64,000 bases of DNA, from contig CALMJT010000104.1 in NCBI GenBank assembly GCA_937864365.1, positions 1-64,000 on the forward strand, written 5' to 3'. This document shows positions 1,464-64,000 of the stretch, piece by piece. The notes under the pieces are model-generated. The model was not told where the DNA came from and searched no databases. It saw only the letters and a list, made by a program, of their open reading frames with translations. The translations under genes were made by a program, and so were the position numbers. Numbering within the stretch: the first letter of the stretch is position 1; each line of letters begins with the position of its first letter. The stretch comes from an uncultured Alteromonadales bacterium. Its GTDB lineage: Bacteria > Pseudomonadota > Gammaproteobacteria > Pseudomonadales > Cellvibrionaceae.

Positions 1464-1811
1464 TTGGAGCTCAAAAATCTTATAAATTGGATGGGATTAA
1501 TTTCAGGCCAAGATAGATTCTATAGGGAAGACGCAGTCACAGTTCACGTTTATGGTGAAGGGGATGAGTCTTATATTGTTATAGAAAGAGAAGTATCTAA
1601 GTCTCCTAGAATCGTTGATCAATACACGATAACTCCTTTTCAAAACAAAAATAGTTTGTATGAACTTGTCCAATTTTTACAAACCTGCGAATTCGATTTA
1701 AACAATTTAGTGTCAAAGATTGTGAGCGCCGATTATGTTGAATATGGAATGAATGATGTCGCTCAATTCGACTTTGTTGAGGTTGCAAGATATCAAGTTC
1801 AGGAGAATTAA
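1464..1811 (+). CDS. Hypothetical protein, 115 aa, first gene of a small putative toxin-antitoxin operon
   Basis: TTG start preceded by AGGAGG (about 1453). Stop lies 5 nt before the next small ORF at 1817. Confidence 0.6.
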   Translation: MELKNLINWMGLISGQDRFYREDAVTVHVYGEGDESYIVIEREVSKSPRIVDQYTITPFQNKNSLYELVQFLQTCEFDLNNLVSKIVSADYVEYGMNDVAQFDFVEVARYQVQEN

Positions 1812-1816
1812 TAAAC

Positions 1817-1984
1817 ATGGACAAAAAGAAGCCATCCATCACAAAAACGAGTACCCTTGATCAGAACAAAATTAAAAATGCAAAAGGTCTGAGTAAAAAA
1901 GAAAAAATTGATACTGCTGCAAAACAGGAACGGAAACTAAAGATCTCGAAATCTGTAATACAAGAGTTTGAGGAATGGCGGTAA
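1817..1984 (+). CDS. Small Lys-rich protein (55 aa), putative antitoxin preceding a YafO-like toxin
   Basis: Manual translation: MDKKKPSITKTSTLDQNKIKNAKGLSKKEKIDTAAKQERKLKISKSVIQEFEEWR*. AGGAG upstream. Its 3' end overlaps the toxin ATG (ATGGCGGTAA). Below the ORF-track size cut-off. Confidence 0.55.
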   Translation: MDKKKPSITKTSTLDQNKIKNAKGLSKKEKIDTAAKQERKLKISKSVIQEFEEWR

Positions 1985-2516
1985 GAGTTTTTACCAGTCA
2001 GATAATCAGAGAAGGGTTACCCGATTCGGAATTGCAACTTTTAGGAACCTCTGATTAACTCATCCATGATTTAATCAGAGGGCAGAAATTGAAAATGCGA
2101 TTTCCAATTTCTTCACAATTTCAATCACTTACCGTTCTTGAAATTGGCGACACATCCTTGTGTCGCGAGAAACTCTAGGTTAATCAGAGTTTCCTTTAGT
2201 ATCCAAATTCAAAATTTATAAAAAAACTGGCGAAACGCAAAACTATTTTGGTAGGGATGTGAGTTTTAACCGGCCAGAAGCAATCAAAACCGCTGGGTTA
2301 ATGCATGTACATTTAAACGATAGAAAGTCATGGGGCGTTCGATTACTGCAATTTGACCGTACCAGTGATACGCACATTGTATATTGTCAAGGCTATTTTA
2401 ATCCGAGCTGCTATCTACTGATTACCCTTTTAAATGGAGCTCATGCGAAATACCGAGACAATTTGTTAATGCTTAGTTTAGCTGATGTAGCTTCTGGCTT
2501 TAGAGATAAATATTAG
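1975..2516 (+). pseudogene. YafO-family mRNA-interferase toxin gene interrupted by a 151-bp repeat element (2044-2194)
   Basis: N-terminal part 1975-2043 = MAVRVFTSQIIREGLPDSELQLL. C-terminal part 2199-2516 = VSKFKIYKKTGETQNYFGRDVSFNRPEAIKTAGLMHVHLNDRKSWGVRLLQFDRTSDTHIVYCQGYFNPSCYLLITLLNGAHAKYRDN... The FGRD and HxVYCQG...LLI..L...H...RDN pattern matches E. coli YafO from memory. The element adds an in-frame stop. Confidence 0.8.
2044..2194 (+). mobile_element. MITE-like element, copy A (151 bp)
   Basis: TIRs GGAACCTCTGATTAA / TTAATCAGAGTTTCC (14/15 match). Flanked by TTTA direct repeats (2040-2043, 2195-2198). Homologous copies at 28898-29060 and 50864-51012. Confidence 0.82.
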
Positions 2517-28897: not shown

Positions 28898-29060
28898 GGA
28901 AACCCTGATTCATCTAGAGTTTCTTGTGGTACAAGGATGTGCCGTCAATTTCTAGATGCGTAAGTGATTGAAATCGTGAAAAAATTAAAAATCGCTGTTT
29001 CGTTTCCTACTCTTCTATTAAATCTCTGATCTAATAATCGAAAAATTAATCAAAGATTCC
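28898..29060 (-). mobile_element. MITE-like element, copy C (163 bp, inverted relative to A)
   Basis: TTAA direct repeats at 28894-28897 and 29061-29064. Reverse complement GGAATCTTTGATTAA...TTTTTCACGATTTCAATCACTTACGCATCTAGAAATTGACGGCACATCCTTG...ATGAATCAGGGTTTCC aligns to copy A. Confidence 0.78.
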
Positions 29061-31738: not shown

Positions 31739-32071
31739 AATCGTTTCCTCAATTCAACCGTGAAAATCGTAAATCACTACCGCAAATGATCAAGGTAGGG
31801 CTGTAAAGTGATAACAAGATCACACTCATTAGTTTAGAAAGTTTACGCTGAACAGGGCATTACTGGTCAAATTTTTCTGATAAATGGTTTTGTTCAGTAT
31901 AGGAGACTCTAATCGAGTTCGAACTATCGGTAACACAGAAGCGAGATTTCATTCTCCATAATCGTAACTGGTTGAAATTATGACGAAATTGGTAATCGCC
32001 TTATCAATACTGGTGCGGTGTTAACATCAGAATGGGTTCACTAAGGCAGTCAAGGCTAAGAGAAAGATTAA

Positions 32072-50863: not shown

Positions 50864-51012
50864 GAAACCTCTGATGGACTCACTTATGATTTCATCAGAG
50901 GGCAGAAATTGAAGATGCGACTTTCAATTTCTTCGCAATTTTTATCACCCACCGTTCTTAATATGGGCGATACATCCTTGTGTTGCTAGAAACTCGGTTG
51001 ATCAGAGTTTTC
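50864..51012 (+). mobile_element. MITE-like element, copy B (149 bp)
   Basis: GAAACCTCTGATGGACTCACTTATGATTTCATCAGAGGGCAGAAATTGAAGATGCGACTTTCAATTTCTTCGCAATTTTTATCACCCACCGTTCTTAATATGGGCGATACATCCTTGTG...GATCAGAGTTTTC, extensively matching copy A; TTA on both flanks. Confidence 0.8.
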
Positions 51013-52578: not shown

Positions 52579-52680
52579 TAAGAGTTGATAGTAATTAAGA
52601 GTTGATAGTAATTAAGAGTTGATAGTAATTAAGAGTTGAAAATAATTAAGGGTCGTAAGTAATTGAAATTGTTAGTAATT
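52579..52680. repeat. 17-bp tandem repeat array (TAAGAGTTGATAGTAAT), about 4 clear plus degenerate units
   Basis: Perfect units at 52579-52595, 52596-52612 and 52613-52629, near-perfect at 52630-52646, degenerate to about 52680. Confidence 0.9.
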
Positions 52681-52700
52681 GAGAATCATATTTTCAATTG

Positions 52701-52748
52701 CTACTCTCTGATTAAATCCTTGCAGAGTGAATTTTAGGTTCTCTTTTC
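52701..52748 (+). repeat. Possible MITE-family remnant (copy F)
   Basis: ACTCTCTGATTAAATCCTTGCAGAGTGAATTTTAGG; CTCTG...CAGAG hairpin and CTCTGATTAA core. Confidence 0.3.
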
Positions 52749-62968: not shown

Positions 62969-64000
62969 CGTTGCAAAAAAGCAATTAAATCGATACTCCC
63001 AAATTTACTATTTTTGCTGAATATTCTGATTAACCCAACGTTCGCTATAGCACGGGTATATCTAGTCAATCTCAATAATGATAAGTGATAGAAATGGTGA
63101 ATAAATTAGAAGTTGAAGTGTCAATTGTTGTCATCTCATTAAATCAAAGCGAGGTTAATCAAACACTTTTATTATTTTCGCCATACTATTTTCCATAAAT
63201 TTATAAATAGCTCGTCGTAATTCAAATAAGATTCGATAGAGTATTTTTGAATATATAATTTGAGCGATCATTTTGTCTGCCCAGTATTAACGTTAAGCGT
63301 TAATCACATATCTAAATCAGTATATTCCAATCCAAGTTGTGAGCTCTGTCGATCTTTGTCGAAATGCGTTGTAACAGCTGAATGCTTACAATGTATAAAG
63401 CTGAAAATGCAGAAATTACTCGATTTATTTAATTCTATTTTAATCTGGAAGAAACAAAGTTGAGATTATTTTCAGATATGGTGCACCCAATAAGTCGTCG
63501 TTAGAAAAATATTGCTTATTATTGGGCGCCTTGGAATTTGTGAACAAAAAACATTAAATCAACCTAATTAAAAAAAACTAAATATGAAATTGTCTCAATT
63601 ATCGTTTTTAGTGTATCTGTTAAAAAAGTTGAGTCGCAAAACAGTTGTTGTGAATTCATGTCATTCTAAAAGCCAATACCAAACTTTGTGAGAATATGAT
63701 TTGCTATGCTTACGGCAATTATTAACATGATAACAATAAAAATAGACCGTTCATTCAACTTGTGAAACGGGGTGTTTCTCAAACGGGCAAAAATTTCCTA
63801 GCGAAAGAATTTTAAACACGTTTCTACCAGATTTGGTTTGTAGTAGTGTAATAGGCGAGATAGAAGTAAAAGTTTTGTTAATCCGTTAAGATTAGAATCT
63901 GTTTTTATCCTAAATCGGATGTTTTTTAGTATAAAATTTTGAATCAATTTGGGATTGTTTACTTCCATGGCGTCCGAAAAATTCACAATCTAAGATTTTA

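What the first reader, a model, noticed from the sequence alone, without database searches (positions are those of the whole stretch)
1975..2516. YafO-like toxin gene disrupted by a precisely delimited 151-bp MITE-like insertion
The ORF track calls only an 85-aa ORF at 2259. The same frame is open upstream to a stop inside the repeat, and a matching N-terminus (MAVRVFTSQIIREGLPDSELQLL) starts at ATG 1975. Removing 2044-2194 plus one TTTA duplication (2195-2198) joins ctt-tta|gta-tcc in frame. The result is a protein of about 128 aa that matches the E. coli YafO layout (FGRD..., HxVYCQG...LLI..L...RDN), which I recall as 132 aa. The element therefore behaves as a recent insertion, and the antitoxin-like ORF is left with an inactivated toxin.
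Basis: partly seen in the sequence, partly recalled or inferred. Interest (0 to 1): 0.86.

Follow-up and report, generated by a model that had tools for sequence, protein, structure and literature searches.

The report
Mobile element breaks bacterial YafO gene
In a bacterium whose genome carries about 300 copies of a 151-base jumping DNA element, one copy has split the gene for a growth-arresting enzyme (YafO), leaving two small companion genes that seem to belong to an undescribed three-gene version of this toxin-antitoxin system.

Summary
Window 2044-2194 is one copy of a 151-bp non-autonomous element (MITE) inside a yafO gene, flanked by a TTTA duplication. The genome has 308 copies of its terminal hairpin; none of 143 other genomes of the family has it. 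About 45 of 62 inspected copies carry an exact 4-bp duplication, and an IS5-like transposase remnant shares its ends. The C-terminal fragment is YafO by Pfam (E 4.5e-26). The N-terminal fragment matches residues 1-23, and the C-terminal one begins at residue 24, of intact 128-aa homologues, so nothing else is missing. The two pieces were searched apart and never joined.

The upstream 55-aa ORF (B) is not YafN/Phd. It and the 115-aa ORF before it (A) form an A-B-yafO order also found in Microbulbifer, Marinomonas spartinae and two other genera, mostly with the same 10-nt B/yafO overlap. A and B match no Pfam, NCBIfam or PADLOC family. I infer a YafO module with non-YafN partners; their function is untested.

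Gene disruption by a MITE is ordinary. The MITE load is high but precedented. The most novel part is the A-B-YafO module.

The parts
1464..1811 (+). Gene A: 115-aa protein of unknown family, first gene of the module (TTG start as listed; true start not established)
   Evidence: Homologous 118-120-aa ORF at the same place in L027, L032-L034, L114-L116, E 4e-10 to 9e-7; no Pfam, NCBIfam or PADLOC family
1817..1984 (+). Gene B: 55-aa Lys/Ser-rich protein, putative antitoxin or accessory factor; overlaps the yafO start by 10 nt
   Evidence: Same position, size and overlap in L114, L115 and L027; no family hit
1975..2043 (+). N-terminal fragment of yafO (codons 1-23); the frame ends at TAA 2056-2058 inside the element
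   Evidence: Sequence; 14/23 identity to residues 1-23 of the intact homologue
2040..2043 (.). Left copy of the target-site duplication TTTA
   Evidence: Sequence; 4-bp duplications in most other copies
2044..2194 (+). 151-bp MITE with inverted ends GGAACCTCTGATTAAC / GTTAATCAGAGTTTCC and five predicted hairpins
2195..2198 (.). Right copy of the target-site duplication TTTA
   Evidence: Sequence
2199..2516 (+). C-terminal fragment of yafO (codons 24-128 and stop); only in-frame start is GTG 2259, which would give 85 aa
   Evidence: Pfam YafO_toxin E 4.5e-26; alignment to L114/L115 from residue 24

Best explanation
A non-autonomous IS5-type element (MITE) of 151 bp inserted between codons 23 and 24 of a yafO gene and duplicated TTTA. 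Shown: the gene is split, the first frame ends four codons into the element, and a protein started downstream at GTG 2259 lacks the first 43 residues including the conserved FGRD segment. Inferred: no active toxin is made. Inferred: the element was moved in trans by an IS5-like transposase whose ends survive at two contig ends. Shown: the broken gene was the third of a three-gene order, A (115 aa), B (55 aa), yafO, which is found with an intact toxin in other genera. Inferred: A and/or B restrain YafO in place of the usual YafN antitoxin, and here they remain as orphans.
For: C piece is YafO; both pieces tile intact homologues exactly. Element: 308 hairpin copies, exact 4-bp duplication in about 45 of 62 distinct complete copies, absent from 143 other genomes of the family. 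Transposase C-terminus followed by the same terminal sequence on contigs C156 and C147. A-B-yafO order in four other genera, B-yafO overlap identical in geometry.
Against: No empty site in the same species or genus. No complete autonomous IS in the assembly. The A and B homologies are weak in the window copy (23-29% for A; B supported mainly by its position, size and C-terminal end). One genome carries A without yafO (L141), so A may not be dedicated to YafO. Function of A and B untested.
Confidence: 0.93

Rival explanations
1. The insertion is a reversible switch: excision of the element restores the toxin, giving phase variation.
For: The downstream half has kept an open frame with no further stop.
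Against: Loss of the element alone would leave both TTTA copies, a 4-bp frameshift; restoration needs loss of 155 bp. No population variation could be seen in one assembly. The same element lies at hundreds of unrelated sites.
Confidence: 0.03
2. The 151-bp segment is a native structured RNA or regulatory part of this operon rather than a mobile insertion.
For: It folds into five hairpins much more stably than shuffles (z = -7.6), and compensatory changes exceed shuffles in diverged copies (15 pairs against 3.2).
Against: Hundreds of copies at unrelated sites with target duplications; absent from homologous yafO genes; no Rfam family.
Confidence: 0.02
3. A and B are ordinary neighbours with no role in controlling YafO; their shared order reflects transfer of one island, and the toxin's real antitoxin was a YafN-type protein elsewhere.
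For: A occurs once without yafO (L141). The near-identical toxins of Microbulbifer and Marinomonas spartinae point to recent transfer. B's conserved tail may only reflect the toxin's ribosome-binding site and start overlap.
Against: The order persists between copies whose A proteins are only 23-29% identical and whose flanks differ, and B overlaps the toxin start, as antitoxin genes often do. No Phd-type gene lies beside yafO in these loci, whereas it does in most other YafO loci of the family.
Confidence: 0.3

Closest known systems
Prokaryotic MITEs (Correia, ERIC, Chunjie, QMITE, MITEAba12; review PMC10969869)
   Same: Short, non-coding, inverted ends, short target duplications, mostly in AT-rich intergenic DNA, stable hairpins, occasional gene inactivation
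   Different: Sequence is specific to this genome among 144 of its family; about 300 copies is high for a MITE, though below the 711 cited for ERIC in Photorhabdus
Escherichia coli YafNO type II toxin-antitoxin system (PMC2814082)
   Same: Toxin of the YafO family (PF13957), toxin gene last and directly after the small partner gene
   Different: No YafN/Phd partner; instead a 115-aa and a 55-aa ORF of no known family; toxin interrupted
Three-component systems such as PaaR-PaaA-ParE and HipBST (cited in PMC7180214; details from memory)
   Same: Three genes in a row, one very small partner next to the toxin
   Different: Different toxin family; roles of A and B here unknown; no homology shown
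IS5-family insertion sequences (from memory of family features)
   Same: DDE_Tnp_1 transposase C-terminus with the MITE's terminal sequence beside it; 4-bp duplications of the MITE
   Different: Only partial copies at two contig ends; subgroup assignment not tested against an IS database

Membership tests
MITE | Short non-coding element with terminal inverted repeats | tested here: met
   151 bp, 17-nt ends 94% complementary
MITE | Many dispersed copies with target-site duplications | tested here: met
   308 hairpins; about 45 of 62 distinct copies with an exact 4-bp duplication (63 rows, one site listed twice)
MITE | Autonomous partner element sharing the ends | tested here: inconclusive
   Transposase C-terminus plus GGAACCTCTGATTAACC at contigs C156 and C147; no complete copy assembled; mobilisation not testable here
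YafO toxin family (PF13957) | Match above the curated cut-off | tested here: met
   C fragment 91.3 bits against 25
YafO equivalog (NF007377) | Match above the curated cut-off of 153 bits | tested here: not met
   87.8 bits for the fragment; the intact homologue also falls short at 124.5, so these are YafO-family proteins but not E. coli-type YafO equivalogs
YafO toxin family (PF13957) | Translation-dependent mRNA cleavage | not testable with these tools
   Known for E. coli YafO (PMC2814082); not assayed here, and the gene is broken
YafNO type II toxin-antitoxin system | Upstream YafN (Phd/YefM-type) antitoxin | tested here: not met
   No Pfam or NCBIfam antitoxin hit for 1464-1811 or 1817-1984; related loci with Phd-type genes are hit by the same search
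Three-component toxin-antitoxin system | Conserved co-occurrence of three adjacent genes | tested here: met
   Window, L027, L032-L034, L114-L116
Three-component toxin-antitoxin system | Neutralisation of the toxin by the partner genes | not testable with these tools
   Needs expression experiments

The most novel reading that the evidence does not exclude
A-B-YafO is an undescribed three-component toxin-antitoxin system in which a 115-120-aa protein and a 51-55-aa protein replace YafN. It has moved between marine gammaproteobacterial genera (94-95% identical toxin in Microbulbifer and Marinomonas), and in this host it was disarmed by a MITE that has multiplied to about 300 copies.
Probability: 0.35. 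Interest if true: 0.55.

Novelty: new variant of a known kind. Interest (0 to 1): 0.4.

Why it matters
The disruption itself is a clean case of a MITE splitting a toxin gene, and it shows that the 85-aa ORF at 2259 is a fragment and not a gene. What could matter more is the module it hit. YafO is usually discussed only with YafN, yet here and in four other genera it sits behind two small uncharacterised genes. That gives a directly testable question: which of the two neutralises YafO, and does one toxin family accept unrelated antitoxins? The host, with about 300 MITE copies that are absent from its relatives, is also a good subject for studying a recent element burst.

Tried and rejected
1) The EF.EW(K/R) tail of B, which resembles the tails of Phd-type partners, as a toxin-binding motif: set aside, because the same bases form the toxin's Shine-Dalgarno region and start overlap. 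2) Native RNA element: rejected. 3) Identity of A by fold: the AlphaFold model is usable (pLDDT 74.5), but there is no significant PDB or viral match. 4) Solved-structure relatives of the YafO fragment: none at E <= 1. 5) AlphaFold model of the intact homologue: low confidence (57.8), used only to note that residue 23/24 falls in a predicted helix. 7) A on plasmids, phages or viral contigs: none; A5-type YafO in viral contigs: none. YafO itself occurs on plasmids and phages with other partners. 8) Promoter/terminator scan of 1280-2560: nothing above chance.

Full report
Observation. The window is contig 104 of a 4.72-Mb, 231-contig genome. At 1975-2516 a reading frame matching YafO is interrupted at 2044-2194. 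The first part, 1975-2043, encodes 23 residues and then stops after four codons of the insert. The second part, 2199-2516, is open to a normal stop. TTTA is present on both sides of the insert.

The gene. The second part alone scores 91.3 bits against Pfam YafO_toxin (cut-off 25) and 87.8 bits against the NCBIfam YafO equivalog (cut-off 153). In the family-level search, 11 other genomes have a relative. Aligned to these, the two window pieces fall next to each other with no missing and no extra residue. Against the 128-aa YafO of Microbulbifer okhotskensis and Marinomonas spartinae, the N piece is residues 1-23 and the C piece residues 24-128. The 85-aa ORF at 2259 therefore begins after the conserved FGRD segment and should be inactive. 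That is inference: no solved relative was found to map a catalytic site, and PMC7180214 notes the lack of structural information.

The element. The own genome holds many copies: 40 at 97-100% identity among 756 first-look candidates, and the 32-nt end hairpin 308 times. None of 143 other genomes of the family has it. Of about 62 distinct complete copies fetched, about 45 have an exact 4-bp duplication, typically TTTA, TATA, TTAA or TATT. Flanks average 32% GC against 42% for the window. Only 4% of 55 sites have open frames of at least 40 codons on both sides, against 72% of random window points. Most copies are thus intergenic, and the yafO copy is one of the unusual ones inside a gene. The window also has degenerate copies, the best at 50866-51010 (84%). 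As RNA the element folds into five successive hairpins (z = -7.6), with more compensatory changes than shuffles in diverged copies. The slid controls reach 12 double-change pairs against 15, so this is only moderate evidence. Two contig ends (C156, C147) carry the C-terminus of an IS5-like transposase followed by GGAACCTCTGATTAACC, the MITE's terminal sequence. This is the likely source of transposase, but no complete copy is assembled.

The partner genes. The ORF before yafO (B, 1817-1984, 55 aa) overlaps the toxin start by 10 nt. The ORF before that (A, 1464-1811, 115 aa) ends 5 nt before B. Neither hits Pfam, NCBIfam or PADLOC, and A hits no Pfam family beyond noise in any of seven members. 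The same A-B-yafO order occurs in L032 and L033/L114 (Microbulbifer and its genus in this collection), L034 (a further genus of the family), L115/L116 (Marinomonas spartinae) and L027 (another genus). A matches at E 4e-10 to 9e-7 with 23-29% identity. The B-yafO overlap has the same geometry in the window, L114, L115 and L027. Most other YafO loci in the family and order carry a Phd/YefM-type gene, alone or followed by a different small ORF; a few (L035, L039, L041) have only a small ORF next to yafO. A profile of A finds only three of 392 genomes of the order: the window, G124 (with yafO), and one genome (L141) where A stands without yafO.

Mechanism. Shown: the MITE split the gene. Inferred: loss of active toxin; transposition in trans by an IS5-type enzyme; A and B as a non-YafN control unit for YafO, now orphaned. 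Loss of the element alone would leave a 4-bp duplication and a shifted frame, so a reversible switch is unlikely.

Known or new. MITEs of this sort, their AT-rich intergenic preference and occasional gene inactivation are well described (PMC10969869). A copy number around 300 is high but below the 711 cited there for ERIC. The YafO family is known (PMC2814082, PMC11980606). I found no description of the A-B-YafO arrangement in two literature searches on YafO. The library holds only open-licence papers, so absence is weak evidence.

Noticed in passing
G000:C84:3387-3704 (L134, L026): The same genome has a second yafO relative with several stops and frame changes, preceded by a Phd-type antitoxin relative; no MITE lies in it.
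   Followed up: partly
L027:818-1662: In another genus the A-B-yafO module also has a damaged toxin: the yafO match jumps from one frame to another around base 1502. It may be a true mutation or a sequencing error.
   Followed up: partly
L022-L025, L040, L119: A third layout, Phd-type gene (102-112 aa), a different small ORF (46-66 aa), then yafO, recurs in the family and order. The small ORF has no Pfam family.
   Followed up: partly
L142, L144, L145, L146: On Klebsiella phage-plasmids and on Escherichia and Pseudomonas phages, yafO follows a 167-190-aa gene mostly annotated hypothetical, a further possible partner type.
   Followed up: no
window 50866-51010, 28898-29039, 63025-63161, 52655-52741, 31950-32038: Degenerate relatives of the MITE (70-84% identity) lie elsewhere in the window, so the element has an older history in this genome.
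   Followed up: partly
L006:1501-1785; contig starts of C7, C12, C18, C58 and others: One MITE is inserted into another, and many contigs end just inside a copy, so the element is a likely cause of assembly breaks and its true count may be higher.
   Followed up: no
L141:1501-1869: An A homologue (122 aa) stands alone, without B or yafO, between unrelated genes.
   Followed up: partly
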